Both the position numbers and the translations under genes were made by a program. This document shows, in pieces, positions 2,010 to 26,260 of a stretch of DNA of 26,422 nucleotides. This DNA comes from a virus: positions 1 to 26,422 of the IMG/VR virus record IMGVR_UViG_3300025655_000243. One strand, 5' to 3'. The notes below the pieces were generated by a model. It did not search any database and was not told where the DNA came from. It saw only the letters and a list, made by a program, of their open reading frames with translations. Position 1 is the stretch's first letter. Every line of letters begins with the position of its first letter.

Positions 2010-2232
2010 TGAATTAATAAAAGTTGCTGAAGAGCAAATTATTACTAATACAGATGAAGACGTATCTGCAGATAGGCTTAAAAACGCTGCTGCGACTAAA
2101 AAGCTAGCTATATTTGATGCGTTTGAAATATTAAATAGAATACAAGAAGAAGAAAATATACTTGAAGGCAAAGAACCTGAAGAAAAACAAGAAAGAGTTT
2201 TTAAAGGATTTGCGGAAGGTAGATCAAAATAA
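1954..2232 (+). CDS. Probable small terminase subunit (TerS candidate)
   Basis: This 92-residue, mostly helical, highly charged protein lies directly upstream of the large terminase, and its TAA overlaps that gene's ATG by one base. The N-terminus (MSIKETKKRIIQAGRKAVDE) is a basic amphipathic helix. The middle (ADRLKNAAATKKLAIFDAFE, then ILNRIQEEE) is a second helix suited to oligomerisation, and the tail is acidic then basic, ending GFAEGRSK. Size and position fit a small terminase that recognises viral DNA and regulates TerL. No diagnostic helix-turn-helix is clear, so the name rests mainly on context. The start lies 56 bases inside the preceding gene in the +1 frame, with no Shine-Dalgarno sequence. 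Confidence 0.5.
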   Translation: MSIKETKKRIIQAGRKAVDELIKVAEEQIITNTDEDVSADRLKNAAATKKLAIFDAFEILNRIQEEENILEGKEPEEKQERVFKGFAEGRSK

Positions 2233-4450: not shown

Positions 4451-6853
4451 ATGGCAGAGTCTGTTATAGGTAATTATTTTCCAAGTCAAGCGGTTAGTGA
4501 CCTTGAGAAGATAACCTACAATTACGGTTTAAAGGTAGCTAAAGCTATTGAAAGAGAATGGATAAACGATACTAGAGATAGCAAAGCTGTTGGAGGCATG
4601 TACTCTGACAATCAAACAAAGTATCATAATTTAAGATTGTACGCTCGAGGAGAGCAGTCAATACAAAAATATAAAGATGAATTATCAATTAACGGTGATT
4701 TATCTTATTTAAACTTAGACTGGAAACCAGTTCCTATTATTCCAAAATTTGTAGATATTGTAGTAAATGGTATAGCTGAAAGAACTTACGACATTAAAGC
4801 TTATTCTCAAGATCCATATGGTGTTGAAAAACGTACTGCTTATATGGAGTCTGTTTTAGCTGATATGGCTACTAGAGAAATTAGTGATTATTCAATGAAT
4901 AAATTTGGTATTAATTTATACCAAAACGATCCTCAAACTTTACCTGGTTCTGAAGAAGAATTAATGCTTCACATGCAGCTAACATATAAGCAATCTGTTG
5001 AGTTAGCCGAAGAGCAAGCTATTAAAGTCTTAATGGAAGGAAATAAATATGAATTAATAAAGAAAAGATTTTATTATGACCTTACTGTATTAGGTATAGG
5101 CGCTGTAAAAACATCTTTTAATACTTCTGAAGGCGTTACAATTGATTATGTCGATCCGGCAAACTTGGTATATTCATATACAACTTCTCCATACTTTGAT
5201 GATATATATTATGTAGGTGAAGTTAAAAATGTACCTATTAATGAGTTAATGAAACAATTTCCTCAAATAACAGAATCTGAAGCAGAGGAAATATTAGCTT
5301 TTAATAGTAAGAAGTCTCCTAAGCACGCTACCTCTAAAGAATTAGATAACAATCAAGTTCAAGTGTTATACTTTGAGTATAAAACATATATGAACGAAGT
5401 TTATAAAGTTAAAGAAACAGGAACTGGAGCTGAAAAGGTTATAGAAAAAGACGATACGTTTAATCCTCCGGCTGACTTAGAAGGAAACTTTGCTAAATTA
5501 GAAAGAGCTGTTGAAGTATTATATGAAGGCGCTTATATTATTGGCGCTCAAAAACTTCTTAAGTGGGATATGTCTAAAAATATGATGCGACCAAAAAGTG
5601 ATTACAATAAAGTTCGCATGAACTATTCTATTGTAGCGCCAAGAATGTATAAAGGCCGCGTTGAGAGTTTAGTTAGTCGTATCACTAGTTTTGCTGATAT
5701 GATTCAATTAACCCACTTAAAGATTCAGCAAATTATGTCAAGAATGGTTCCAGATGGAGTTTATCTTGACGCTGATGGTCTAGCTGAAATAGATTTAGGT
5801 AATGGAACAAATTATAATCCACAAGAAGCATTAAACATGTTCTTCCAAACTGGTTCGGTTATCGGTAGATCAATGACTTCAGATGGTGATGTAAACCCTG
5901 GTTCTGTTCCAATTAGAGAAATACAAAGTGGTAGCGGTGGTGCTAAGCTCCAAAGCTTAATAGCAAACTATAACTACTATTTGCAAATGATGCGTGATGT
6001 TACTGGTTTAAATGAAGCTAGAGACGGTTCAACACCGGATAAAAACGCTTTGGTTGGTGTTCAAAAATTAGCCGCAGCAAATTCAAACACAGCAACAAGA
6101 CACATATTACAATCTGGTTTATATTTAACAGCTCAAACAGCTGAAGCTTTATCTTTACGTATATCTGATATAATAGAATATTCTCCAACTAAAGATGCGT
6201 TTATTCAAGCTATTGGAGCTCACAATGTTGCTACGCTTGAAGAAATGTCTAATCTACATCTTTATGATTTCGGTATATTTATTGAATTATCTCCAGATGA
6301 AGAAGAAAAAGCTTTATTAGAAAATAATATTCAAGTTGCATTAGCTCAACAATCAATAGAATTAGAAGATGCTATTGATCTTAGAGAAATAAACAATATC
6401 AAACTTGCGAATCAATTATTAAAGATTAGAAGAATTAAGAAGCAAGAAAGAGACATGGCTAGAATGCAACAACAATCTCAAGCACAAGCTCAAGCAAATG
6501 CTTTTGCTACTCAATCAGCTGCTCAAGCTGAAGTTGCAAAACAACAGCAATTAACAATGATGGAAGCAGAACTTGAAAAATTAAAATCTCAATTGAAACT
6601 TCAAGAAATTCAAGCCCAAGGCGATATTGATAAAGAAATCGCTAGAGCTAAAACTGAAACTAGCATACTTACAAGACAGATGGAAATGAAAGGTATGTTG
6701 GACAGAGAAAAAGAAAAAGAAGATCGTAAAGATGAGAGAACTAGAATACAAGCTTCACAACAAAGTGAACTTATAGACCAACGTAAAAAAGAGACACCAC
6801 CTAAAAAATTCGAATCATCAAGTGATGATATATTCGGAGATTTACTAAAATAG
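4451..6853 (+). CDS. Portal protein
   Basis: This 800-residue protein starts three bases after the terminase gene. It would form the dodecameric ring through which DNA enters and leaves the capsid. The N-terminal region has patterns seen in large podovirus-type portals (HNLRLYARGEQS, IIPKFVDIVVNGIAERTYDI). The central part includes ARDGSTPDKNALVGVQKLAA, in the long-helix/stem region. Residues about 660-770 are a Gln/Ala/Lys-rich coiled coil (RMQQQSQAQAQANAFATQSA), matching the long C-terminal helical 'barrel' of P22- and T7-type portals. The end is polar (SSSDDIFGDLLK). Position between terminase and scaffold strongly supports the call. Confidence 0.88.
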   Translation: MAESVIGNYFPSQAVSDLEKITYNYGLKVAKAIEREWINDTRDSKAVGGMYSDNQTKYHNLRLYARGEQSIQKYKDELSINGDLSYLNLDWKPVPIIPKFVDIVVNGIAERTYDIKAYSQDPYGVEKRTAYMESVLADMATREISDYSMNKFGINLYQNDPQTLPGSEEELMLHMQLTYKQSVELAEEQAIKVLMEGNKYELIKKRFYYDLTVLGIGAVKTSFNTSEGVTIDYVDPANLVYSYTTSPYFDDIYYVGEVKNVPINELMKQFPQITESEAEEILAFNSKKSPKHATSKELDNNQVQVLYFEYKTYMNEVYKVKETGTGAEKVIEKDDTFNPPADLEGNFAKLERAVEVLYEGAYIIGAQKLLKWDMSKNMMRPKSDYNKVRMNYSIVAPRMYKGRVESLVSRITSFADMIQLTHLKIQQIMSRMVPDGVYLDADGLAEIDLGNGTNYNPQEALNMFFQTGSVIGRSMTSDGDVNPGSVPIREIQSGSGGAKLQSLIANYNYYLQMMRDVTGLNEARDGSTPDKNALVGVQKLAAANSNTATRHILQSGLYLTAQTAEALSLRISDIIEYSPTKDAFIQAIGAHNVATLEEMSNLHLYDFGIFIELSPDEEEKALLENNIQVALAQQSIELEDAIDLREINNIKLANQLLKIRRIKKQERDMARMQQQSQAQAQANAFATQSAAQAEVAKQQQLTMMEAELEKLKSQLKLQEIQAQGDIDKEIARAKTETSILTRQMEMKGMLDREKEKEDRKDERTRIQASQQSELIDQRKKETPPKKFESSSDDIFGDLLK

Positions 6854-8092: not shown

Positions 8093-9583
8093 ATGGCAAT
8101 AATAAATGGCTCTAACCTTAACAGTGTTGGAGCACCAACAAAAGCCACCCTTAATTCAAACTTCTTAGATTTAAGAACTACTGGGTGGACACAACAGTAC
8201 TTACCTGAGCTAATCGCTGAGGAAGCTGCTGTATTTGGCAACAGAAGTGTTGCTGGATTTTTAGAATTAGTAGGAGCTGAAGAGCCGATGGCTGCTGATG
8301 AAGTTATATGGTCTGAGCAAGGTCGTTTGCATTTAGCTTATACTGTTGATCACACTGCTACTGATGGTACGTTTATAGTTACTGGAACAGTAGATGCTCC
8401 TGGCTCTGCTGGTGTTGGCGTACTTAACGGTATTAGAAAAGGTGATACTATCATGGTAACTGACGCTGACGGTACAGTAAAAGCTTATGTAACATCTACA
8501 TTTGCTGAAGATGGTACTGACGGTGTAGCTATGACTGGTGTTGGTACTTTTAAAGCTGCTCCTTATACTCAAGCTACTTTCGCTACAGCTGGCGGTAACG
8601 CTATTGCTGTTAGCCAAACAGGTTTAAGAGCTTTTGTATATGGATCTGAGTACAAAAAGGGTACTAATGGTCGTGGTTATGGCCTTGATCCAGATTTCAA
8701 ATCTTTCTCTAACCGTCCAATCATATTAAAAGATAAATTTGAAGTTTCAGGTTCTGATGCTTCTGCTATCGGTTGGGTTGAAGTTACTGGTGAAGATGGT
8801 CAAACTGGTTACATGTGGTACTTAAAAGCTGAAGGTGATACTAGAAAGCGTTTTGCAGATCAATGTGAAATGGCTATGGTTGAAGCGGTTAAATTTAATA
8901 GCGGTGGTACTGGTGTTCCTCAAGGAACTGAAGGACTTTTTGCTGCTATTGAAGATAGAGGTTTAGTTGCTTCTGGAATGGTTAATAATGGTACTCAAGC
9001 TGACTTAGCTGACTTTGACACTATTTTAAAAGAACTTGATAAGCAAGGTGCTATTGAAGAGAATATGCTTTACGTTAATAGAGATATGTCATTAAACATT
9101 GATGATATGTTAGCTACTATTAATGGTTATAGCGCTTCTGGTGCTTCAAATGCTGCTTCTTTTGGTGCTTTTGAAAACGATGTTGATATGGCTTTAAACT
9201 TAGGTTTCTCTGGATTCAGAAGAGGTTCTTATGACTTCTATAAATCTGACTGGAAATACTTAAATGATGGAGCTACTATTGGCGAATCTCTTGATACTAC
9301 TGTAGGTGGTGGTTCTCTTGTTAATGACGGTGCTGTACAAGGTGTTCTTATACCAGCCGGTGCTACTAACGTGTATGATCAGTCTTTAGGACGTAGAATG
9401 AATCGACCATTCTTACACTTACGTTATAGAGCTTCTCAAACTGAAGATAGAAAAATGAAAACTTGGATCACTGGATCTGTAGGTGCTGCTACCTCTGATC
9501 TTGATGCAATGGAAGTAAACTATCTTTCTGAGAGATGTTTAGTAACTCAAGGTGCTAATAACTTCGTATTATTCAGAAAATAA
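8093..9583 (+). CDS. Major capsid protein
   Basis: This 496-residue protein follows the scaffold and is followed by a strong intrinsic terminator, the usual context of the most highly expressed virion gene. It begins MAIINGSNLNSVGAP and continues with an extended arm and helix (TTGWTQQYLPELIAEEAAVF). The body is Gly/Ala/Asp-rich with alternating strands, and the C-terminus is RPFLHLRYRASQTEDRKM followed by LSERCLVTQGANNFVLF. This is consistent with an HK97-fold capsid protein, with a probable inserted domain around residues 95-180. Codon use is more uniform (GCT, GGT, ACT) than in the neighbours, as expected for a highly expressed gene. The call rests on position and general sequence character. 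Confidence 0.87.
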   Translation: MAIINGSNLNSVGAPTKATLNSNFLDLRTTGWTQQYLPELIAEEAAVFGNRSVAGFLELVGAEEPMAADEVIWSEQGRLHLAYTVDHTATDGTFIVTGTVDAPGSAGVGVLNGIRKGDTIMVTDADGTVKAYVTSTFAEDGTDGVAMTGVGTFKAAPYTQATFATAGGNAIAVSQTGLRAFVYGSEYKKGTNGRGYGLDPDFKSFSNRPIILKDKFEVSGSDASAIGWVEVTGEDGQTGYMWYLKAEGDTRKRFADQCEMAMVEAVKFNSGGTGVPQGTEGLFAAIEDRGLVASGMVNNGTQADLADFDTILKELDKQGAIEENMLYVNRDMSLNIDDMLATINGYSASGASNAASFGAFENDVDMALNLGFSGFRRGSYDFYKSDWKYLNDGATIGESLDTTVGGGSLVNDGAVQGVLIPAGATNVYDQSLGRRMNRPFLHLRYRASQTEDRKMKTWITGSVGAATSDLDAMEVNYLSERCLVTQGANNFVLFRK

Positions 9584-11247: not shown

Positions 11248-12120
11248 ATGGCTATACTATCAGATACTCAAAATAGTTATTATTCAGGATCAGGTGATAG
11301 TTTTGGAAGCTATCAGTTTGTTTCTTTAACAGATATAATTAATGCTTTTATTTTTACTTATACTGGTGAAAATAAAATATTCCCAAAAGTTCAGCGAACA
11401 GAAGTTGCATTTCATGCTCAAAGAGCTTTACAAGAGCTAAGCTTTGATACATTAAAATCTTTTAAATCACAAGAAATTGAAGTCCCACCCTCGTTGCAAA
11501 TGATTTTACCACAGGATTACGTTAGTTATATTAAGTTTTCGTATATAGACACTTCAGGTATTAAAAATATTATATATCCAACCAGAATAACACAAAACTT
11601 TACAGCTATATCACAAGATTCAAATGGAAATTATCAGTTTACTGGAGATAACCTAACGTTACAATCTGAGTCTGACGCTTGGACTAATTTTAAAAATATT
11701 GAAGCTAACGTGGATCTCGATGATTATGATGATGATACTTACACTGATTTACTAGGTAGTAGATACGGAGTTGATCCAGAACACGCTCATACGAACGGCT
11801 CTTTTTATATTGACGAAAATGCTGGTAAAGTTCATTTTAGCTCTCATTTTAGTGGCAAGACTATTGCAATAGAATACATTAGCGATGGATTAGGAACAGA
11901 AGATGAAATGAAAGTTCATAAATACGCTGAAGAAGCTATGTACAAGCATATTGCTTATGCAGTATCTTGCACATATAAAAATATACCAGAATATGTAGTT
12001 GGTAGATTTAAAAAAGAAAAAAGAGCTGCTACAAGACAAGCTAAACTTCGTTTGTCTAAATTTAACTTAGAAGAGTTAACGCAGGTGTTAAGAGGTAAGT
12101 CTAAAATAATCAAACACTAA
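11248..12120 (+). CDS. Probable head-to-tail adaptor (tail tubular protein A-like role)
   Basis: This 290-residue protein lies immediately upstream of the nozzle-like protein, the position of T7 gp11 (tail tubular protein A). It contains a helical segment (RTEVAFHAQRALQELSFDTL) followed by VPPSLQMILPQDYVSYIKFS, a proline-bracketed strand pattern I associate with phage neck proteins. An acidic stretch follows (DLDDYDDDTYTD), and a basic helical C-terminus (KKEKRAATRQAKLRLSKFNL) could contact DNA or the portal. No membrane segment or signal is present. The call rests on order and overall architecture, not on a diagnostic motif. Confidence 0.5.
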   Translation: MAILSDTQNSYYSGSGDSFGSYQFVSLTDIINAFIFTYTGENKIFPKVQRTEVAFHAQRALQELSFDTLKSFKSQEIEVPPSLQMILPQDYVSYIKFSYIDTSGIKNIIYPTRITQNFTAISQDSNGNYQFTGDNLTLQSESDAWTNFKNIEANVDLDDYDDDTYTDLLGSRYGVDPEHAHTNGSFYIDENAGKVHFSSHFSGKTIAIEYISDGLGTEDEMKVHKYAEEAMYKHIAYAVSCTYKNIPEYVVGRFKKEKRAATRQAKLRLSKFNLEELTQVLRGKSKIIKH

Positions 12121-12124
12121 TTTA

Positions 12125-15100
12125 ATGGCTGAGATTAAGAATAACTTTTTAAAAGGTCGAATGAATAAAGACCTTGATGAAAGACTAGTTTCTAAAGGTG
12201 AGTATCGCGACGCGTTGAATGTAGAAGTATCTTCTTCTGATGGCAGTAATATTGGTACAGCTCAAAACATAAAAGGTAATAGCTTAATCGCTTCTCCAAT
12301 TTCAAGCAATTACACGTTTACCAACGCGGTGGATGCTGAAGTCGTTGGAGTTATAGCAGACAAGCCAAATGATAAGATGTATTACTTTGTTAAAAATGCT
12401 AACAATGTAGATGACGAAACATATAATGGCAACCTAGTAACATTAGGCTTGGCTTCTGATGCTATAATAGAATATGATTCTACTACAGATGAAACCGACT
12501 ATATATTTGTAGATGTCCATACTACAATAGTTAAAGTTAATGCTTTTGCGGGCACCACGGTGACGCTAACATCAGTAAACGACACAGCTGGAATAGAACC
12601 AGGTATGAAAGTTGAGGCTATTAAATATGATGGGCTTGACATTTTTATTGATGATGATGTTAGGGTTGTTAGTGTAAACGATTTAGTTGGAACTCTTGTA
12701 ATATCTAGCTCGCAAGCCATTTCTCAAGCGAACATTGATAACAACTCGGTGGTATTGAGATTAACAAAAGCGAAATTGTTAAATTTTAGTGAGCTCAATA
12801 ATAGAAATATAACTGGAATAAATATTATAGATGGTAATATTTTATTTACAGATGGAATTAGTGAGCCAAAGAAAATAAATATTAATAGATCGCGCTTAGG
12901 AACCAACAACCAATACAATACAACGCACATTGTAATAGAAGATCCAACTGAAGTTGGTGGATATAGTATAAGCTCAAGACAGGCTTGCGTATTAGAAAAT
13001 ATAACTCTTATTAAACAAAATCCTCAAGAGCCTCCTAGAATAAAAATTTATAATACTCATAGAGAGGCCGATACTACAGCTTCAATAAACACTATAAATC
13101 TTGATTCATACAGTATTGGAGACTCTGTAGAGCTAGTTGCTTCCGCTGTTCCGGAATATTATGTTGGTGATACATTAAACTTAGACGACGGATTAGGCGG
13201 TACGGCTACGGTTGTAATAACGGATATAAATAGTGGTGTTAATTTAACTTGTATAATAATCAATATAAGCGCTAGTAACGGCGCTCAGACTTGGACAGCT
13301 GAGCTAGCTAGAGCTAATACAATGTATGAAAATTCGTTTATTAGATTTGCTTATAGATATATATACCAAGAAAACGAATACTCTGGTTATTCTCCATTTT
13401 CTAACGCTGGCTTTAGTGACGCTAGAAAACCACAAGATGATGACTTTGGCGTAAATTTTACTAAACTTCTTATAGTTCAAAACTGGGTTCCACCTTATAT
13501 ACCCGAAGATGTTAAAGCTATAGAAATAGTAGCTAAACTAGATTCAGCCCCACAGATATATTCTATAAAAAAGTTTGATAGATATTCTGATGAGTTTGAG
13601 GTAGATGCCGATGGTAGTTATAATGGCAGGTTTGTAATTAGATCAGAAGTATTTTTATCTACAATAGAAGATAATCAAATATTAAGACCGTGGGATGCTG
13701 TACCAAAGTTTGCGTTAGCGCAAGAGATAACAGGCAATAGAGTGTTATTTGGAAACTACACTCAAGGTTACGATTTAATTGATTCGAGTTTTCTACCTAT
13801 AAATTTAGACATGGATGTTTCTATACGCCCATATAACGATTCTTCAAATGAATATCATTTTAATTATGCTAGAGAATCAGTTAAATCTGGTAGATCTTAT
13901 CAAGTTGGCGTAGTCTATAGAGATGATCTTGGAAGAGAAACACCAGTATTAGTATCTGAGAGCTCTGTTATAAAAGCTGATAGATTACTTTCCTACTACA
14001 ACAATAGGATAGTTGCTAAAATCAAAAGTCCAGCGCCCTATTGGGCTACTTCTTATAAATTCTTTGTGAAAGATACAACTCCGGTATCATATAATGTTGT
14101 AATACAAAATGTTTATGAAGTAGAGGATTATTGGTGGATCGAATTTGATTCAAAAGACAAAGATAAAATAAAAGAGGGTGACACTTTAATATTAAAAAGA
14201 TTCAATGGATATGCTACTGAAACTCAAGCAGCGTCAATAGTTGTTGAGAATGTCTCAAACCCAACCGCTGAGTACGAGGTGTTAAGTAGGAGTAACGAAG
14301 CTCCTTTAGCAATAGATCCTGACGTTGCAAATGGTAAATTTTGGGTTAAAATAAAAAATGACAGTTTAGCAGTTTTAAATATAAGTAACTGGGGACTAGG
14401 ACCAGAGAATAATAAAGGTGTATTTGAAGTAAAGCCAATAACATTAGCTGATACAGATATATATTTTGAAGCAAGTCAAGCTTATCCCATTAGAATGAAC
14501 AGAGAGACGTGCCAGCAGTATATTAAAGTTGGATCTTATGTTACTGGTGTTAGTATCGACTCTTCTGGAGTTCCAACGTCATTAGATGGTACTTTACCGC
14601 CGAATACGCAGCCATTTGCAGACGACGGTGAAGTTTATGTTACGAACGTAGTTAGTACTAGTGATTCTGTAACTGAAACTATTGCAATAACACTTGACAC
14701 GTCAATTACCTTGACAATACCAGCTGATGGTAAAATATTGCTTCGTTTTGCGCTACCGCCAACTACAACTCAAACTGGAGTTTTTGAAAGTGGTGATTGT
14801 TTTGTTACGGCGGAATTAGCAGCAGATGTAGCTGCTTCAAACACTTTATATTTAAAGAAACTAACACATCCAATAGCTACTGATTTAACACCGTCAAACA
14901 GTATAATGTTACCTTGGTATAATTGTTATTCTTACGGTAACGGCGTTGAGTTGATGAGTATTCAAGATTCAATATTATACCCTCAACTATCAAAAGGCGT
15001 GAAAGTATCTTCTATTATAGAAGATTATCAAGAAGAAAATATATCAAATGGTTTAATATTCTCTGGAATATATAATAAAAAAAGCTCTACAAATAGACTT

Positions 15101-16810
15101 AACCAATTTATTGCGGCAGAAAGCATAACTAAAGATTTAAGCCCAGAATACGGTAGCATTCAAAAACTACATTCAAGAGATACTGACGTTATTGCTTTGT
15201 GTGAAGATAAAGTTTTACGCGTATTAGCTAATAAAGACGCTCTATATAATGCTGACGGAAACATAAACGTAACATCTAACGAAAATGTATTAGGTCAAGC
15301 AATACCATACGCTGGAAATTATGGTATATCCAAAAATCCAGAATCATTTGCTGACTACGGCTATAGAGTTTACTTTGCTGATAGAGCAAGAGGTTCAGTG
15401 TTAAGATTATCTAGAGATGGCCTAACGGTTATATCAGATATCGGCATGAAAGATTGGTTTTTTGACAACTTAAAGTCGGCTTGGAAAGTATTAGGAACCT
15501 TTGACGATCGAAAAAACCATTATAATATAACCGTATACGCTGGTGGCGACAACTCAAGATTTCTAGGTATAGACGCAGACAATAATACTATTTCATTTAA
15601 TGAATCAAGTAACGGTTGGGAAAGTTTTAAATCTTTTTTACCAGAATCTGGCATAAGTTTAAACGCTCAGTATTATACATTTAAAAATGGAAAACTTTGG
15701 TTACACAGAAGTAGTGAAACAAGAGGTAATTTTTATGGTAGTCAATATGACGCTACAATTACAACTGTATTTAATTCATCTCCAGATGTTATTAAAAGTT
15801 TTAAAACACTTAACTACGAAGGTAGTCAAACTAGAGTTATCCAAGATCTAACAGATCAACAATATTATAATAACACAGCATTCGCTGGTTGGTGGGCGGA
15901 CTCACTAACAACAGATTTTGAGAGCGGTGTTGTAAGAGAATTTATAAATAAAGAAAATAAATGGTTTAACTATATTCACGGAGCAAATACTGAATGGACT
16001 AACGATGAAGGTTTAGGAGCGTCTGGTAACATAGACACTCAAGCATTTTCTTTACAAGGTGTAGGTGCTTTATCTATTGATTCTACTGGAGATGCTCCAG
16101 CTGTAACATATTCTTTATATGTCAATCCAGCTCCCGCGGCTGCTGTTAGCGAATTTGTTTCTAATAACAATGTTACTATATCTGGATTATCTGGTAGCGT
16201 AACGCCCGGAGATCAAGTATTCACAATAACGCCTCTACCTGGGTATTCTATTCAAGCTACTAGTGTATCTGTGTTTGGAGCTTTACCATCACAAATAAGT
16301 GGTGTTACGTTCACTCAATCTGGAAGTAATGTTATAGGAACTATAACGTTTAATAACTTTACTGCAAGTAGCAATCAAACTATAACTTTTCAATATACTT
16401 TTACTAAGAAAATAAAAGAAGCTGATGTAGAGGTATCTATAGGTCATAAAAAAGATACTAATGAAGTTGTAGATATAATTGTTTCTGGTAACTACGCTAA
16501 AGGCACTGGACAGAGTAGTGTGCAAAAACTAGTGTACCCTGTGATTGGTACACCAGAAAAAAGTGTATTTGAAAAAGTATGTACCGCAGACTTTACAGCT
16601 GACTCTGGATATTATTATCCTGTAGCGCCAAGAGTAGAAATAAAATCAAAGAATTTGCAGAACTATCGAGTTATTTACGGCAAGCCAACTTTAGATGGAA
16701 GTAACAGAATAATAGCTCAACAAGTATTTATAGAGTTCTTAGCGGAAGTTGATAAATATTTTTACGAAGGAGATTTAGTATATTTTAACCAAGAAACACA
16801 AGCTATATAA
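12125..16810 (+). CDS. Very large tail-nozzle/DNA-stabilisation-type protein (tail tubular protein B-like)
   Basis: This 1561-residue protein begins with FLKGRMNKDLDERLVSKGEY and RDALNVEVSSS, a start typical of beta-propeller nozzle proteins that plug the tail exit (T7 gp12 and P22 gp10 role). Repeated strand-turn units fit propeller blades, for example NILFTDGISEPKKININR, NRVLFGNYTQGYDL, and YGISKNPESFADYGYRVYFA at about residues 1066-1085 with the following ARGSVLRLSRDG. Residues about 1202-1237 contain FYGSQYD and SFKTLNYEG. A Ser/Thr/Val-rich segment at about 1320-1430 looks Ig-like. The protein is roughly twice T7 gp12 and three times P22 gp10, so extra domains are inserted. Its stop overlaps the next start by one base. 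Confidence 0.65.
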   Translation: MAEIKNNFLKGRMNKDLDERLVSKGEYRDALNVEVSSSDGSNIGTAQNIKGNSLIASPISSNYTFTNAVDAEVVGVIADKPNDKMYYFVKNANNVDDETYNGNLVTLGLASDAIIEYDSTTDETDYIFVDVHTTIVKVNAFAGTTVTLTSVNDTAGIEPGMKVEAIKYDGLDIFIDDDVRVVSVNDLVGTLVISSSQAISQANIDNNSVVLRLTKAKLLNFSELNNRNITGINIIDGNILFTDGISEPKKININRSRLGTNNQYNTTHIVIEDPTEVGGYSISSRQACVLENITLIKQNPQEPPRIKIYNTHREADTTASINTINLDSYSIGDSVELVASAVPEYYVGDTLNLDDGLGGTATVVITDINSGVNLTCIIINISASNGAQTWTAELARANTMYENSFIRFAYRYIYQENEYSGYSPFSNAGFSDARKPQDDDFGVNFTKLLIVQNWVPPYIPEDVKAIEIVAKLDSAPQIYSIKKFDRYSDEFEVDADGSYNGRFVIRSEVFLSTIEDNQILRPWDAVPKFALAQEITGNRVLFGNYTQGYDLIDSSFLPINLDMDVSIRPYNDSSNEYHFNYARESVKSGRSYQVGVVYRDDLGRETPVLVSESSVIKADRLLSYYNNRIVAKIKSPAPYWATSYKFFVKDTTPVSYNVVIQNVYEVEDYWWIEFDSKDKDKIKEGDTLILKRFNGYATETQAASIVVENVSNPTAEYEVLSRSNEAPLAIDPDVANGKFWVKIKNDSLAVLNISNWGLGPENNKGVFEVKPITLADTDIYFEASQAYPIRMNRETCQQYIKVGSYVTGVSIDSSGVPTSLDGTLPPNTQPFADDGEVYVTNVVSTSDSVTETIAITLDTSITLTIPADGKILLRFALPPTTTQTGVFESGDCFVTAELAADVAASNTLYLKKLTHPIATDLTPSNSIMLPWYNCYSYGNGVELMSIQDSILYPQLSKGVKVSSIIEDYQEENISNGLIFSGIYNKKSSTNRLNQFIAAESITKDLSPEYGSIQKLHSRDTDVIALCEDKVLRVLANKDALYNADGNINVTSNENVLGQAIPYAGNYGISKNPESFADYGYRVYFADRARGSVLRLSRDGLTVISDIGMKDWFFDNLKSAWKVLGTFDDRKNHYNITVYAGGDNSRFLGIDADNNTISFNESSNGWESFKSFLPESGISLNAQYYTFKNGKLWLHRSSETRGNFYGSQYDATITTVFNSSPDVIKSFKTLNYEGSQTRVIQDLTDQQYYNNTAFAGWWADSLTTDFESGVVREFINKENKWFNYIHGANTEWTNDEGLGASGNIDTQAFSLQGVGALSIDSTGDAPAVTYSLYVNPAPAAAVSEFVSNNNVTISGLSGSVTPGDQVFTITPLPGYSIQATSVSVFGALPSQISGVTFTQSGSNVIGTITFNNFTASSNQTITFQYTFTKKIKEADVEVSIGHKKDTNEVVDIIVSGNYAKGTGQSSVQKLVYPVIGTPEKSVFEKVCTADFTADSGYYYPVAPRVEIKSKNLQNYRVIYGKPTLDGSNRIIAQQVFIEFLAEVDKYFYEGDLVYFNQETQAI

Positions 16811-19363: not shown

Positions 19364-22300
19364 ATGTTTGAATATAATGGAAAAGAGTATTCGCTTGACC
19401 AAATTCAAAGCGAAGCTAACGCACAGGGCGTAGACTTTAATGAGTATTTAGATTTTTTAAAAACTCAAGGCCTTGTGGAAAAGACACAAGACTCTCAGAT
19501 AACGAGTGCACCTGCGGAGTCGGAAACTGCTGCACTCGATACGGTATCTCCTTCGGAAGACACTTTTTTGGTTTCACCTCAAGACGAAGAAGAAGCTGAT
19601 TTCTTAGATAAATTAGGGAATATATTTGAAAATCAAATACCAACAGTTAAGAACGCATGGGAAAGCACTAAAGCAAATTTAGTCGACTATGTTAAATTTA
19701 TGGGCGGCAAAGATGCTGCTGATTTTTTTGTTGGTGAAAGTGATGGTGGTATAGCTTTTAAAGACGAAAGTACCGGAGAGACTATAACATTTAAAAATAA
19801 TCCTGAAGTTTGGAAGCAAATAGCTAATGATCCAAATAGAGATTCTTATTCTAATATAAAAACAATATATAAAGACACTGGCAAAGAAGTTGGCGAAGCA
19901 ACCGACGAATTTCTTATTGATACTTTTAAACAAATAGAGAAGAACAAGCTAGAATATAAGGACACTGGAAAAGGTATAGTTGGTGGCTTTAAAGAAGGAA
20001 ATATTGGTGATGTTGTTCTTGGGGCTGTGAATGGCCTAACCAGTGTTGTTACTACGGCTGGTCCAGCTATGATGACTGGTGGCCTTACTTTAATACCTCA
20101 AGTTGTAGCCCCAATGTATACAGAGTATAACATGGAGAAAGCAAAAGCTAAATATGGCGAAGATGATCCTAATGCTTTTGAAAAACTTGTTGAAAACAAC
20201 GAAACAGAATTAGGCGCCCCAGCTGTACTTGGAGCAATGGCTTATGCCTTAGAGAAAATAGGTATAAAAGGTATAGGGAAATACATAGCATCAAAATCTT
20301 TCGCTGGAAAACAAGCTGTAAAACTAGCGTTAACTGGAAATAAAGAAGGTTTAACTGAATATTTTCAAGGTGGTGTAGAGCAAATAAACAAAGGTTTGGC
20401 TCAAGGACAAGATTACGAAAAAGTAATTGAAGACACTTGGGATTGGATGCAAAGCGAAGAAGCTTTAGAAAATTACGCTCAAGGTTTTGTAGGTTCTACT
20501 GGTATGTCTAGTAGTGGTAGAGCTATATCAAACGCTATGAAAAGTAGCGAGCAAGCAAAGCAAGATATATATAGACAAATAAATGTTATTTCTAGTTTAA
20601 ATCAAGCTATAAGAGAAACTAATAGTAACGAATTAAAAGAAAGCTATCAAGAAGACCTAGCTATAGCTGAGCAGAATTTAAGAGAAATAGTAGAAGAAAA
20701 TAATAGAAAAGCAGAGTTATTAAGTAAAGAGCAAAAAGATAACGTCATTAGTAATATTAATCAAAGAAAAGCTCTTAGAGATAAAGCTAATAAATTAATA
20801 AAACAAAAAGATCAAGGCGTAATAACTCAACAAGAGTTTGACGCTGCTGCAGAACTTATTAACAAGCAGAATAAACAAATTGATGATAATATTGAAGTAA
20901 TTAGAAAAAGCGCTTCTGATAAGCTCGTTCAAGAAAACATCAACAACGTAAAGAAAGCTGCTAAAAACACTTATGGAGACGACGTTCAAATTAAAGAACT
21001 TAGCGCTGAAGAAGTAAAACAATACGTTAGAGATAATTTTAAAAACTTAGACAAGGATCAGCAAGAATCTTTAACAGAAGAAGCCGCTGCTAGTCAAGGG
21101 TTTTTTGAAGGCGCAGTTATTGATGGAAAGCAAGACGTAATTATAAATAAAGATGTAACGCAAGAAACATCTGGTATTAACGTAGCTTCCCACGAATTTT
21201 TACACAAAGTATTATCTAAATCTCTTGATGATAAATCTAGAATTGAAGTTGGTTCAGCTTTAATTAATCAACTAGCTAAAATGGATTTACCACAATTAGA
21301 GGGTAGTAAATTTGCTAAAAGATTACAACTATATAAAGACAAACCTGAATCAGTTCAAGCTGAAGAAATACTAACATTGTTATCCGATGCAATTAGATCT
21401 GGAGATTTAGACTTTAAAGAAGGTGTGTTTGCTAGACTAGGAAACACTATTAGAAGAGGATTACAAAATGCTGGTATAAGAAAAATTAAATTTGATAGTG
21501 GTAGAGACATTTATAATTTTATTAAAGATTATAATAAATCTATTGAGAAAGGTATATTAAAAGGAGCTGTAAAAGAAGCGGCTGTAGAAGGTATAACTGG
21601 TAAGTTAATCGAACAACCAGTAGTAAACATTAAAGATGATGTAGCTAAGTTTTCAAAAGAAATAGCTTCTCAAGAAGTTCAAAATATATACGAGCAACAA
21701 GGTGAAGCCGGTATGTTTGATATATTCCAAAAATTCAAACCTATCACAACACGTATTGCTAGAAGATTTAGAGAAGTACCAGGTTATGATGAACAGTTAA
21801 TCATTGATGAAATAGAAACTGGCGAAAGAGGTATCTTAGATCTTATTAGATCATATAAACCTGAGTCTGGAGTACCTTTAGCCGCTTATATAAATAAGTT
21901 CCTTCCAGCACGCTCTATTGAAGCCGGTAATAGAATACTTAAAACAGAGTTTGAGTCAGATGTAACTGAAGAAAAAGGCGTAGCCGCTACAGAAACAGCT
22001 GAAGACGTAGTTGAAACAACTACTAGAGAAGAAGGTAGAAAAACTAAAGCTAAAGTTATAGCTGATGAATTAAACATAGCTGATAAGGTTGCATCAGAGG
22101 TCGCGGAAGCTAATATAGATCCTAACGTATTAACTAACTTTAAAAGTGTCCCTAACGCCGCTATAAACACCGTAGGTGAGATGTTAGGAATATCTCCAGC
22201 TAAAATAAAAAGCAAAGCCAATTTAACAGCGGAAGAAGTTGCTAGTGCTCAACGTTGGTTTAATAAAAACGCTCAATTAGTTATCGATGCTTTACCACAA

Positions 22301-25300
22301 GGATTTGATGTTGAAGGTCAAGCGACAGGTGTGCCTAAAACTGTTTTAGCAGCTTTGTATACTCAAAAAGAGTCAAGAGCTAAGACTAAAGCTGGTTTAA
22401 AAGGTCAAGTTAAAAGAACAAATATAAAAAATTCAGAGCTTTTAGAGTTGGTAGATATTATAGACGGCAAACCAACTCGTAATAGAAATACATCGGCTAG
22501 AGTTATAGCATTAGCTGACTTACTAGGCAAAACAATTACTAATCAAGAAATTAGAAGAACCACTCCAGGTACAGAAAGAATACGAAGTGGTATGTCTAAG
22601 GTTATGTTTAGTTTTGCAGAAGATATAATAAACATTAAATCTTTATTCGAGCTAGAGACTAAAGGTATAGACAAGCTTCTTGAAGCTTACGACTTGAATT
22701 TGACTTTTGATTTAAAAACAGAAAAAGGCATAGAACAAGCTGTTGAAACAATAAAAACGAAACTATTGCCATTATTACCTAGAGATTTCTGGTTTGGCAC
22801 TCCAAATAAAAAAGGTGAATTTGGAACTGTATTTACGCCAAGTTACTACGTCGTTGGAACTAGCAAAAACGCAGAGGTTAAACAAAAGTATAAAAACTTG
22901 TATAAAAAGTTTGAAACTGAAATAAAAAAACTAAGAGATGATAAAGATGTTACTTTTGGCGAGGATATTTTAGATTCAAATGGAAAACCTATAGATTTTT
23001 CAGTATCTTCTTATAGCACTATATTTAAAGACGCTAATACTATAAAGAAAAATAAAAAGAAAATAGAAGCTTGGAATAAAAAAGTCGCGCTAATACATAG
23101 AGAAATGTGGAAGCGATTTAATAAAGCTATACAAGACGATAAAAACAATGCTAGCATAATTGGCAATTACTTAAAAATGGTTGGTAGCGATACCGGGCAT
23201 TGGCATAAGCTAGGAGCTCAATTTGTTGGTTATTCAGACAAAATAACTGGAAAAAGATTTGAGTACGAACATGCTATGCCGGCTACATCTGCGTATTTAT
23301 ATCTCATGGACGCTGCTTTATCTGAGTCTAACTTTGACGCTTCTTACGATTTAGTTATAGACAACTACAAGTTAATAGCGTTAGACAAAGCTATGGATAA
23401 GAAACTAACTGCCGTTGGACTTCAAAGACGTATGCCTGAAGGCTGGGACTTAATAGAAAATAACTGGTGGGATAGATATTTTAATGAGTTAGTCGGCAAT
23501 GTAGATGGAGGTATAAATCCTAATTCTATTGTAGGTTTAGATGGAAAAGGTCTTGGCGAAACATTAAACGTCAATACTGAAGGTAATGTAATGTTTTCTA
23601 AACCTATTGGTAAAAATATTAATGTTAGCGAAGCTATGCTTAATGCTAGACCAGCATTACAATATAGTAAAGAATCAAGAGGTATGTCTACTTTTGATTT
23701 TGATGAAACACTAATTATTGATGGTGAAAACTTTGTCACAGCTACTAAAGGTGATGACGTCGTTAAAATACCTTCTGATAAATGGCCTATTGATGGTCCA
23801 GCTTATGCTGATCAAGGATATGAATTTGACTTTTCTGATTTTGTTAATGTAAGAGGTGGTAAAGAAGGTCCGCTGTTACAAAAAATGAAAAATCAAATCA
23901 AAAAGTATGGACCTGAAAATGTATATGTGCTTACGGCAAGAATGCAAGAAGCTGCTACACCAATATACGAATGGTTAAAAAGTCAAGGTATTAATATACC
24001 TATAGAAAATATAACTGGATTAGGAAACAGCAAAGGTGAAGCTAAAGCTTTGTGGATGCTAGATAAGTTTGCAGAAGGATATAACGATATGTACTTTGTA
24101 GACGACGCTTTGCCAAATGTTGAAGCTGTTAAAGATGTTCTTGACCAGTTAGATATTAAATCTAAAGTTGTTCAAGCTAAAATTCAATTCAGCAAAGGCT
24201 TAAGCAGTGAGTTTAACAAAATATTAGAAGATACTAAAGGAATATCTGCTCAAGAAAAAATATCAAAAGCTGCAGCTAAAGCTTACGGTAGAGATATAGG
24301 TAGATACGAGTTCTTTATTCCTCCAAGCGCTGATGATTTCGCTGGTTTGATCTATAGATTTCTTGGCAAAGGAAAACAAGGTGAGGCTCATAAAGAGTTT
24401 TTCAAAAAAGCTTTGTTTGATCCATTTGCTAGAGCTGATCGTGAAATGGACTTAGCTAAAACAAATATAAGAGAAGATTATAAAAATCTTAAAAAGAATT
24501 TCCCTGAAGTTGTTAGAAAGCTTAATAAAAAGATAACAGGTAAACCCTATACTTACGACACGGCTATAAGAGTTTATTTATTTGACAAAGCTGGATATAA
24601 ATTATCAGACATGTCAGATAAAGAAATTGCTGAGTTAAGAGATTTTGTTAAAGCTGATGATTTTTTAAGAACATTTGCTGATACATTAGGCCTAATAACA
24701 AAGGTAAAAGAAGGTTATATAAAACCCGGAGAAAGTTGGTTAGGCGGGAATATAAACTCAGATCTTCAAGATGCTGTAGACAAAGTTGGTAGAAAGAAAT
24801 TCTTAGCTGAATGGATGGAAAATAAAAAAGCAATATTTAGTGAAGCAAACCTAAATAAAATTGAAGCTACCTACGGATCAGCATTTAGATCTGCCTTAGA
24901 GGATATTTTATTCCGAATGGAAAATGGCATAAACAGACCTTCAGGAAGCAATGCTATAGTTAATAGATGGAATAATTGGGTTAACAATTCTGTTGGTGCA
25001 ATTATGTTCTTAAATATGAGATCCGCTGTTCTTCAGACCTTGTCTACAGTTAACTTTATTAACTTTGAAGATAATAATATATTTAACGCCGCTAAAGCAT
25101 TTGCTAATCAAAAACAATATTGGGAGGACTTCTCTACATTGTTTAACTCTCCTTTCTTGAAACAAAGAAGATCAGGTTTGCAAACAGATATTAATCAAGC
25201 TGAACTTGCTAGCGCTGTGGCTGGAGCTAAAAATAAAGCTAGAGCTGCGTTTCAGTTCATGATTAAAGTTGGTTTTGCTCCAACGCAAATAGCGGATTCT

Positions 25301-26260
25301 TTTGCTATAGCTACTGGTGGAGCTACTTTTTATAGAAATAGAATTAAAAAATATTTAAACGAAGGGTTAGACCAAAAGCAAGCTGAGACTAAAGCTTTTC
25401 AAGATTTCCAAGAAATATCTGAAGAAACGCAACAGTCTGCTAGACCAGACCGTATATCTCAACAACAAGCTTCTGTTCTTGGTCGTTTAGTATTAGCTTT
25501 CCAAAATACTCCAATGCAATATGCTCGTCTTATTAAAAAAGCGTCTTTAGACTTAGTTAATAAAAGAGGTGATTGGAGAAGTAATGTATCTAAAATAATA
25601 TACTACGGAGCTATACAGAATATAATATTTTCAGCTATGCAGAACGCTGTGTTTGCTATTATGTTTGATGACGAAGAAGATAAAGAAATGCTAGATGAAA
25701 AAACACTTCGTATTGGTAATAGTATGCTAGATTCTATACTTAGAGGTTCTGGTTTAGCTGGAGGAGTTGTTTCTACAATTAAAAATATAATCATTAAATT
25801 TTTAGATGAAGAAGAAAAAGGCTATAAAGCTGACATGGGTAATGTTGTTGTTGAAGCCGCTAACATCTCGCCTCCAATTGGATCTAAACTTAGAAAACTG
25901 TATTCAGGTTTAAAAACATGGAAGTTTAAAAAAGATCAAATAAAAGAAACAAGCCCGTATGATATAAATAATCCTGCGTGGTTAGCTTCTGGAAACGTTA
26001 TATCAGCAGCAACAAATGTGCCTGTAGATAGATTTGTTAAGAAATTATCAAATATTCAGCAAGCATTTAATCAAGACAATGCTACATGGCAAAGAATAGC
26101 TGTGGGTTTAGGTTGGGATCAATGGGGATTAGGTATAACGCCTCAAGCTAAAGAAAAAGATAAAAGATCTATGGATGTTAGAGAAGTTAGAGAGAAAAGA
26201 TCTAAGGATATTAAAAAGGCTAGAGAGGAAAGAAGAAAAAGACTACAAAGACTAAAATAA
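19364..26260 (+). CDS. Giant multi-domain ejected virion ('polyvalent') protein
   Basis: This 2298-residue protein is last in the ejection trio (T7 gp16 position). In order: N-terminal YNGKEYSLDQIQSEANAQG motif as in packaged virion proteins (1-35); hydrophobic, possibly membrane-active stretch (214-255); coiled coils (390-540); zincin motif HEFLH (610-614) with Glu667/668 as possible third ligand; sigma-70 region-2-like segment (790-870); EYEHAMPATSAY segment (1300-1311) resembling His-Me-finger nucleases; HAD phosphatase with D1445/D1447/T1449, LTAR (1523-1526), K1557 or K1561 and D1580/D1581; long C-terminal region (1865-2110) with hydrophobic helices (NSVGAIMFLNMRSAVLQTL; KIIYYGAIQNIIFSAMQNAV); Lys/Arg-rich tail (2263-2298). 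No lytic transglycosylase motif was seen. HAD is firm, zincin good, sigma and nuclease resemblances tentative. Confidence 0.75.
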   Translation: MFEYNGKEYSLDQIQSEANAQGVDFNEYLDFLKTQGLVEKTQDSQITSAPAESETAALDTVSPSEDTFLVSPQDEEEADFLDKLGNIFENQIPTVKNAWESTKANLVDYVKFMGGKDAADFFVGESDGGIAFKDESTGETITFKNNPEVWKQIANDPNRDSYSNIKTIYKDTGKEVGEATDEFLIDTFKQIEKNKLEYKDTGKGIVGGFKEGNIGDVVLGAVNGLTSVVTTAGPAMMTGGLTLIPQVVAPMYTEYNMEKAKAKYGEDDPNAFEKLVENNETELGAPAVLGAMAYALEKIGIKGIGKYIASKSFAGKQAVKLALTGNKEGLTEYFQGGVEQINKGLAQGQDYEKVIEDTWDWMQSEEALENYAQGFVGSTGMSSSGRAISNAMKSSEQAKQDIYRQINVISSLNQAIRETNSNELKESYQEDLAIAEQNLREIVEENNRKAELLSKEQKDNVISNINQRKALRDKANKLIKQKDQGVITQQEFDAAAELINKQNKQIDDNIEVIRKSASDKLVQENINNVKKAAKNTYGDDVQIKELSAEEVKQYVRDNFKNLDKDQQESLTEEAAASQGFFEGAVIDGKQDVIINKDVTQETSGINVASHEFLHKVLSKSLDDKSRIEVGSALINQLAKMDLPQLEGSKFAKRLQLYKDKPESVQAEEILTLLSDAIRSGDLDFKEGVFARLGNTIRRGLQNAGIRKIKFDSGRDIYNFIKDYNKSIEKGILKGAVKEAAVEGITGKLIEQPVVNIKDDVAKFSKEIASQEVQNIYEQQGEAGMFDIFQKFKPITTRIARRFREVPGYDEQLIIDEIETGERGILDLIRSYKPESGVPLAAYINKFLPARSIEAGNRILKTEFESDVTEEKGVAATETAEDVVETTTREEGRKTKAKVIADELNIADKVASEVAEANIDPNVLTNFKSVPNAAINTVGEMLGISPAKIKSKANLTAEEVASAQRWFNKNAQLVIDALPQGFDVEGQATGVPKTVLAALYTQKESRAKTKAGLKGQVKRTNIKNSELLELVDIIDGKPTRNRNTSARVIALADLLGKTITNQEIRRTTPGTERIRSGMSKVMFSFAEDIINIKSLFELETKGIDKLLEAYDLNLTFDLKTEKGIEQAVETIKTKLLPLLPRDFWFGTPNKKGEFGTVFTPSYYVVGTSKNAEVKQKYKNLYKKFETEIKKLRDDKDVTFGEDILDSNGKPIDFSVSSYSTIFKDANTIKKNKKKIEAWNKKVALIHREMWKRFNKAIQDDKNNASIIGNYLKMVGSDTGHWHKLGAQFVGYSDKITGKRFEYEHAMPATSAYLYLMDAALSESNFDASYDLVIDNYKLIALDKAMDKKLTAVGLQRRMPEGWDLIENNWWDRYFNELVGNVDGGINPNSIVGLDGKGLGETLNVNTEGNVMFSKPIGKNINVSEAMLNARPALQYSKESRGMSTFDFDETLIIDGENFVTATKGDDVVKIPSDKWPIDGPAYADQGYEFDFSDFVNVRGGKEGPLLQKMKNQIKKYGPENVYVLTARMQEAATPIYEWLKSQGINIPIENITGLGNSKGEAKALWMLDKFAEGYNDMYFVDDALPNVEAVKDVLDQLDIKSKVVQAKIQFSKGLSSEFNKILEDTKGISAQEKISKAAAKAYGRDIGRYEFFIPPSADDFAGLIYRFLGKGKQGEAHKEFFKKALFDPFARADREMDLAKTNIREDYKNLKKNFPEVVRKLNKKITGKPYTYDTAIRVYLFDKAGYKLSDMSDKEIAELRDFVKADDFLRTFADTLGLITKVKEGYIKPGESWLGGNINSDLQDAVDKVGRKKFLAEWMENKKAIFSEANLNKIEATYGSAFRSALEDILFRMENGINRPSGSNAIVNRWNNWVNNSVGAIMFLNMRSAVLQTLSTVNFINFEDNNIFNAAKAFANQKQYWEDFSTLFNSPFLKQRRSGLQTDINQAELASAVAGAKNKARAAFQFMIKVGFAPTQIADSFAIATGGATFYRNRIKKYLNEGLDQKQAETKAFQDFQEISEETQQSARPDRISQQQASVLGRLVLAFQNTPMQYARLIKKASLDLVNKRGDWRSNVSKIIYYGAIQNIIFSAMQNAVFAIMFDDEEDKEMLDEKTLRIGNSMLDSILRGSGLAGGVVSTIKNIIIKFLDEEEKGYKADMGNVVVEAANISPPIGSKLRKLYSGLKTWKFKKDQIKETSPYDINNPAWLASGNVISAATNVPVDRFVKKLSNIQQAFNQDNATWQRIAVGLGWDQWGLGITPQAKEKDKRSMDVREVREKRSKDIKKAREERRKRLQRLK

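What the first reader, a model, noticed from the sequence alone, without database searches (positions are those of the whole stretch)
21731..21976. Sigma-70 region-2-like segment inside a virion protein
Residues about 790-870 read FKPITTRIARRFREVPGYDE, then LIIDEIETGERGILDLIRSY and KPESGVPLAAYINKFLPARS. This matches the order of the sigma core: a first helix with an Ala-Arg-Arg-aromatic pattern, 'DLxxEGxxGLxxAVxxF-PExG--F-tYaxxxIR'. A stretch around residue 938 (TVGEMLGISPAKIKSK) has a helix-turn-helix look and could be a region-4 remnant. If real, the phage may inject a sigma-like factor that redirects host RNA polymerase at once. The resemblance is by eye.
Basis: inference. Interest (0 to 1): 0.72.

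Follow-up and report, generated by a model that had tools for sequence, protein, structure and literature searches.

The report
Sigma-like domain in giant phage protein
A giant protein that this uncultured phage of the Bacteroidota probably packs in its particle and ejects into the cell contains a diverged copy of the part of bacterial sigma factors that docks on RNA polymerase, so the phage may grip the host's transcription machine the moment it enters.

Summary
The 2298-aa ORF at 19364-26260 contains, at aa 772-870 (nt 21677-21973), a diverged sigma-70 region-2 domain. Support comes from several largely independent lines. Sliding profile comparison over the whole protein puts sigma region 2 only here (25 against at most 14 elsewhere). 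A 75-member profile scores 29.2 against sigma region 2 (column-shuffled maximum 17.2). Pfam Sigma70_r2 and PHROG sigma families hit relatives (best 5e-5 and 2e-4). Two AlphaFold models from separate subfamilies match almost only sigma factors. The domain is an island of conservation (dN/dS 0.06-0.12 against three close relatives) and has been swapped between relatives.

The 'region 4' at aa 936-951 is not supported. The -10 readers of sigma (W433/W434, Q437/T440) are absent, so this is a sigma-2-like domain, not a sigma factor.

Context: the gene lies last in the virion block of a muzzle-bearing, crassvirus-like phage, where phi14:2 and crAss001 encode ejected cargo and virion RNA polymerase. 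Relatives show no virion RNA polymerase but carry a separate complete sigma. Best explanation: an ejected, zincin-containing polyvalent protein whose sigma-2 domain docks on host RNA polymerase at once. Homology is well supported; ejection and docking are inferred.

The parts
19364..26260 (+). Giant ORF, 2298 aa (P0001), last gene of the virion block on this contig; proposed ejected cargo / polyvalent protein
   Evidence: follows TerL, portal, capsid and muzzle genes; same position as MS-detected virion proteins of phi14:2
21041..21523 (+). Zincin-like metallopeptidase region, HEFLH at aa 610-614 (nt 21191-21205)
   Evidence: H, E, H and a downstream E invariant in 18 aligned sequences; no PDB profile hit, so assigned by motif only
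21677..21973 (+). Sigma-70 region-2-like domain, aa 772-870
21806..21928 (+). Stretch aligned without gaps to E. coli RpoD 403-443 (regions 2.2-2.4), aa 815-855
   Evidence: alignment; residue counts
22001..22543 (+).
   Evidence: sigma region 4 not supported; 75-89% identical in close relatives even where the sigma-2 domain differs
23681..24163 (+). HAD-type phosphatase / polynucleotide-kinase-like domain, FDFDETL motif at aa 1444-1450
   Evidence: motif located; relative L012 hits phrog_415 polynucleotide kinase E 4.4e-4; not confirmed by PDB profile
24881..25783 (+). C-terminal module aa 1840-2140, the family's most conserved part
   Evidence: 69% mean column identity; found in at least 547 viral stretches; weak profile match to phi14:2 g067
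12125..16810 (+). Crassvirus-type muzzle protein gene (context)
   Evidence: Pfam crAss_MUZ_C 4.2e-9

Best explanation
The ORF encodes a giant multidomain cargo protein that is packed in the virion of a crassvirus-like podovirus of Bacteroidota and ejected with the DNA. In its middle, after a zincin-like metallopeptidase region, sits a domain homologous to sigma-70 region 2. Most likely this domain docks on the clamp (beta-prime coiled coil) of host RNA polymerase right after entry. It would keep the host sigma off the polymerase or tether the polymerase to incoming phage DNA, until the phage's own complete sigma factor, encoded elsewhere in relatives, is made. Shown by computation: the homology, the conservation, the swapping, the gene position, and the lack of a detectable virion RNA polymerase in near-complete relatives. 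Inferred: packaging, ejection, peptidase processing, docking and its effect.
For: Sequence: sliding profile scan of the whole protein; family profile against sigma with shuffled null; Pfam Sigma70_r2 in relatives E 2.2e-4 and 5.1e-5; PHROG sigma families phrog_1025 in six members and phrog_1740; PDB profile search with a sigma factor first, E 0.0038; a generic sigma-2 HMM run on 104 giants plus reversed decoys puts 9 of its 10 best hits inside this domain. Fold: two AlphaFold models from subfamilies about 15% identical, both matching sigma factors. Function under selection: dN/dS 0.06-0.12 against L016, L015 and L018, while the zincin and linker stretches of the same pairs are at 0.46-0.97. 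Modularity: L034 shares the stretch after aa 900 at 55-95% but has a very different version of the domain, about 26% identical. Context: muzzle followed by mid-size genes and the giant, as in phi14:2 where those genes are MS-detected; relatives have a complete sigma (10 of 11), no Rpb1-type RNAP, and no BLAST match to the phi14:2 or crAss001 virion RNAP in four relatives although phi14:2 g066 finds crAss001 gp50 at 1.8e-49.
Against: Single-sequence Pfam scores stay below or near the curated cut-off (21.4 against 24 bits), and Foldseek E-values are weak (0.08 and 0.33). W433/W434 and the -12 readers are absent and the RNA polymerase contacts are only loosely kept, so the fold may have been reused for something else. 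No region 4. No direct evidence that this protein is in the particle or is ejected. Cultured or named phages with a giant in the same place (elemoA, phi13:2, phi38:1, ctfjg026) lack the domain.
Confidence: 0.55

Rival explanations
1. The domain is homologous to sigma region 2 but no longer touches RNA polymerase; the helical bundle has been reused inside the ejected protein for DNA binding or as a structural spacer.
For: Promoter-reading and melting residues are lost and the beta-prime contacts drift; no region 4; several divergent versions are exchanged, which would also fit a structural part.
Against: Strong purifying selection (dN/dS 0.06-0.12) and an aromatic residue at the sigma-70 Y430 position in 98% of 48 non-redundant members plus R/K at 438 in 93%, more than a spacer would need.
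Confidence: 0.25
2. The domain is a true promoter-specific sigma module: together with core RNA polymerase it opens phage early promoters from a -10-like element alone.
For: Fold and the ungapped alignment over regions 2.2-2.4; near-universal aromatic at the -11-capture position; jump-starting transcription is a known theme of injected polyvalent proteins (PMC5512222).
Against: W433/W434, Q437 and T440 equivalents absent; no region 4 for a -35 element; relatives already encode a complete sigma.
Confidence: 0.12
3. Convergent four-helix arrangement without common ancestry with sigma factors.
For: Helical bundles give middling matches easily; the VIA note warns that Z under 13 may mean only a common arrangement; unrelated helical PDB and Pfam entries appear at similar weak E-values.
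Against: Foldseek hits are mostly sigma for two separate subfamilies; profile scores far above column-shuffled nulls; same register in all comparisons.
Confidence: 0.08

Closest known systems
Sigma-70 region 2 (Pfam PF04542; RpoS, RpoH, FliA, SigE, T4 gp55)
   Same: Helix pattern and order, ungapped alignment over regions 2.2-2.4, universal or near-universal aromatics at sigma-70 positions 419 and 430
   Different: No -10 readers W433/W434, Q437, T440; no supported region 4; embedded in a 2298-aa protein
Polyvalent proteins of phages and conjugative elements (Iyer et al. 2017, PMC5512222)
   Same: Multidomain, encoded among late virion genes, zincin-like motif, jump-start transcription proposed as a theme, N4 virion RNAP fused to a metallopeptidase
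   Different: No occurrence of the word sigma in the main text of that survey; no known polyvalent-associated Pfam domain found here
Crassvirus cargo proteins: crAss001 gp45-gp50; phi14:2 g065-g069 with virion RNA polymerase g066
   Same: Position after the muzzle; large ejected proteins delivering transcription functions (PMC10172136)
   Different: No detectable RNA polymerase subunits in relatives; sigma-like domain instead; sequence similarity to g067 only weak (E 1.3e-4 in a six-protein search)
Elemovirus gp21 (Flavobacterium phage elemoA, 3694 aa, annotated structural protein)
   Same: Same place in the genome, similar TerL, HExxH motif; relative L016 aligns with it over 627 aa at 6.8e-18 in the N-terminal part
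   Different: No sigma-2-like domain or matching C-terminal module

Membership tests
Sigma-70 factor | Region-2 four-helix fold | tested here: met
   Two AlphaFold models match sigma region 2; predicted only, pLDDT mostly 80-90 over the domain
Sigma-70 factor | Score above Pfam PF04542 cut-off (24 bits) | tested here: not met
   Window protein: no hit; relative L037 21.4 bits; best E over 57 members 5.1e-5, bits not shown
Sigma-70 factor | -10 melting and reading residues W433/W434, Q437, T440 | tested here: not met
   0-2% of 48 non-redundant members; Y430 position aromatic in 98%
Sigma-70 factor | RNA polymerase contact residues in region 2.2 | tested here: inconclusive
   D403 kept in 52%, others drift
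Sigma-70 factor | Region 4 helix-turn-helix | tested here: not met
   Scores within the shuffled null; no hit above reversed decoys in 104 relatives
Sigma-70 factor | Binds core RNA polymerase and directs initiation | not testable with these tools
   needs biochemistry
Polyvalent protein (Iyer et al. 2017) | Several unrelated domains in one polypeptide | tested here: met
   Zincin motif, sigma-2-like domain, HAD-like motif, conserved C-terminal module; zincin and HAD by motif or one relative's weak hit
Polyvalent protein (Iyer et al. 2017) | Encoded among late virion genes | tested here: met
Polyvalent protein (Iyer et al. 2017) | Known polyvalent-associated domains | tested here: inconclusive
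   No meaningful Pfam hit up to E 1; zincin seen by motif only
Crassvirus cargo protein | Present in the virion and ejected | not testable with these tools
   inferred from synteny with MS-detected phi14:2 proteins
Crassvirus cargo protein | Sequence homology to gp47/g067 | tested here: inconclusive
   A3 profile against g067 E 1.3e-4 in a six-protein search; no BLAST match

The most novel reading that the evidence does not exclude
A lineage of crassvirus-like phages replaced the ejected virion RNA polymerase by an ejected protein with a sigma-2-type clamp-binding domain that seizes host RNA polymerase before any phage gene is expressed, with exchangeable versions of the domain tuned to different hosts.
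Probability: 0.35. Interest if true: 0.82.

Novelty: new variant of a known kind. Interest (0 to 1): 0.62.

Why it matters
Phages are known to eject RNA polymerases (N4, crassviruses) and RNA-polymerase-modifying enzymes (T4 Alt), and to make sigma factors after infection. A virion protein that carries a sigma-type polymerase-docking domain would be another route to immediate control of host transcription, in a family with at least 547 matching stretches in public viral contigs. It gives a short, expressible domain with which to test how muzzle-bearing phages of Bacteroidota that lack a detectable virion polymerase start transcription.

Tried and rejected
Region-4 remnant at aa 936-951: profile score within the shuffled null and no hit above reversed decoys in relatives. 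Sigma-2 domain in syntenic giants of named phages (elemoA gp21, ctfjg026, phi13:2 gp127, phi38:1 gp101): none found. Sigma-2 domain in crAss001 gp44-gp50 or in phi14:2 g065-g069: nothing above noise. Close relatives of the giant in the phage collection: no tblastn match; the one hit of L012 (LR756500) lies at the polynucleotide-kinase-like part, not at the domain. Relatives in bacterial genomes: none. T7-type RNA polymerase (PF00940) in relatives: no hit, but no control rang either, so no conclusion. Zincin, HAD-like and C-terminal modules against PDB sequences: no meaningful hit. A literature search for a packaged or injected sigma factor returned only unrelated (mostly reovirus) papers; most subscription papers are not in that library. 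The 29 of 104 giants without a detected domain include several truncated fragments.

Full report
What the window is. The 26,422-base window is a whole virus record (IMG/VR contig). Reading left to right it holds the late block of a podovirus: large terminase 2232-4448, portal 4451-6853, virion structural genes 8093-9583 and 11248-12120, and a muzzle gene 12125-16810 with the crassvirus muzzle C-terminal domain at E 4.2e-9. Then come genes of 117, 259 and 452 aa, and the ORF in question, 19364-26260, 2298 aa. The terminase is closest to an uncultured podovirus from a Florida spring (MW202828, 64%) and to phages of Flavobacterium (Elemovirus), Maribacter, Cellulophaga and Tenacibaculum, so the host is most likely a member of the Bacteroidota. 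It is crassvirus-like by its muzzle; several of its nearest named relatives belong to Pachyviridae and Pervagoviridae.

The observation. The protein itself has no Pfam or PHROG hit, so relatives were needed. After removing duplicates, 104 giants remained, and an iterated profile found the segment in 75 of them, in the middle of the protein.

Is it sigma region 2? Six tests agree. First, 110-aa windows along the whole protein family were compared with a sigma region-2 profile (E. coli RpoD, RpoS, RpoH, FliA, RpoE, FecI, further RpoD sequences and a phage sigma): the three windows over aa 751-920 score 22-25, all others at most 14.4. Second, the 75-domain profile scores 29.2 (E 2.5e-5, probability 75%) where 200 column-shuffled versions reach at most 17.2; the divergent subfamily alone scores 23.9 (null maximum 16.5) and the window-like subfamily alone 31.1 (null maximum 18.9), in the same register. 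Third, library searches: Pfam Sigma70_r2 matches L037 at E 2.2e-4, 21.4 bits, under the 24-bit cut-off, and the best of 57 members at 5.1e-5; PHROG sigma families phrog_1025 (six members, best 5.7e-4) and phrog_1740 (2.3e-4) match. Fourth, the profile against PDB sequences finds the SigE N-terminal domain first (E 0.0038), with six further sigma entries among 21 hits. Fifth, AlphaFold with 27 sequences gives helices at aa 769-800, 810-819, 824-830 and 839-859; Foldseek's best ranks are sigma factors (best E 0.08), and the VIA rows shown are sigma factors or models of sigma with RNA polymerase partners (Z 9.0 for sigma-70, 3.4 A over 91 residues). A second model from a subfamily about 15% identical, folded with 14 sequences of its own, again gives sigma factors for Foldseek ranks 1-27 and Z up to 8.4 in VIA. 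Sixth, a sigma-2 HMM searched through 104 giants and their reversed copies has 9 of its 10 best hits inside this domain, which is about 4% of the length. Each E-value is modest, and the VIA tool warns that Z below 13 can be a common arrangement for helical bundles; the agreement of separate tests is what convinces. The iterated family search used a lenient inclusion threshold (E 0.01 in 104 sequences), so the most divergent members are less certain than the window-like ones.

What is kept and what is lost. Aligned without gaps to RpoD 403-443, the family keeps an aromatic residue at 419 (all members), an aromatic at 430 (98%), and R/K at 438 (93%). It lacks W433 and W434, Q437 and T440, with which sigma-70 melts and reads the -10 element (roles from general knowledge), and keeps D403 in about half. 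So the domain is sigma-2-like, and the protein should not be called a sigma factor.

Selection and swapping. Across 21 relatives, aa 801-850 averages 59% identity to the window; aa 1-800 lies between 10% and 41%. Against L016, L015 and L018 the domain has dN/dS of 0.06-0.12, against 0.46-0.97 in the zincin and linker stretches of the same pairs (synonymous sites are close to saturation, so these are rough). L034 shares the stretch after aa 900 at 55-95% but has a different version of the domain at about 26%, with a sharp boundary at about aa 900; L019 is at 62% in the domain against 89% just after it. Exchange of whole versions is what one sees in parts that meet a variable host partner; that reading is inference.

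Context of the protein. Upstream of the domain all 18 aligned sequences keep HExxH and a later Glu, a zincin motif; downstream lies a DFDET motif of HAD phosphatases, and relative L012 matches polynucleotide kinase in that part. No PDB profile hit confirms these two. The gene order muzzle, mid-size genes, giant parallels phi14:2, where the genes after the muzzle are annotated as virion proteins from MS/MS and one is the virion RNA polymerase, and crAss001, whose cargo proteins gp45-gp50 were found in the particle and are proposed to be ejected (PMC10172136). Relative L016 aligns with the Elemovirus structural protein gp21 over 627 aa at 6.8e-18. Two long relatives look nearly complete: G007 has a 5-kb overlap of its ends at 77-91% identity (read as a noisy assembly), G003 a 318-base terminal repeat. 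In G003, G007, G011 and G015 no ORF resembles the virion RNA polymerase of phi14:2 or crAss001 by BLAST, although the same search links those two phages at 1.8e-49, and Rpb1 is not found in 11 relatives. Ten of 11 encode a separate sigma of about 255 aa. These phages therefore probably depend on the host polymerase and re-program it with their own sigma once that is made; the ejected protein would act before.

Mechanism. Shown by computation: homology, constraint, swapping, place in the virion block, no detectable virion polymerase in relatives. Inferred: packaging and ejection (about 0.8), docking of the domain on the beta-prime clamp (about 0.6 given homology), and its effect. Since the reading residues are gone and region 4 is missing, I prefer blocking or tethering of RNA polymerase to promoter-specific initiation; release by the zincin, as proposed for polyvalent proteins (PMC5512222), is possible.

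Novelty. Giant injected multidomain proteins are known as polyvalent proteins; their survey has no occurrence of 'sigma' in its main text. A literature search for packaged or injected sigma factors found only unrelated papers. I class it as a new variant of a known kind.

Noticed in passing
L042:16043-18802 (G007, minus strand): A 920-aa phage protein with a signal-peptide-like start, repeated YGCTDPxAxNYxxxAxxDDGSC-type motifs and a C-terminus resembling a type IX secretion sorting domain (YPNPTSDYIYV...LAPGVYNITI), which would be unusual for a phage gene; by eye only.
   Followed up: no
L042:3695-4444 and matches in 10 of 11 relatives: Free-standing phage sigma factor (phrog_351, E down to 1e-26) in the relatives; possible partner or successor of the sigma-2-like domain.
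   Followed up: partly
window 12125-16810: Crassvirus muzzle C-terminal domain in a phage whose terminase is closest to Elemovirus, Pachyviridae and Pervagoviridae phages.
   Followed up: no
L034:7833-8732 versus window 21641-22543: Sharp recombination-like boundary at about aa 900: domain replaced while the following stretch stays 55-95% identical.
   Followed up: yes
window 23681-24163; L012: HAD-type DFDET motif and polynucleotide-kinase-like stretch in the same giant protein.
   Followed up: partly
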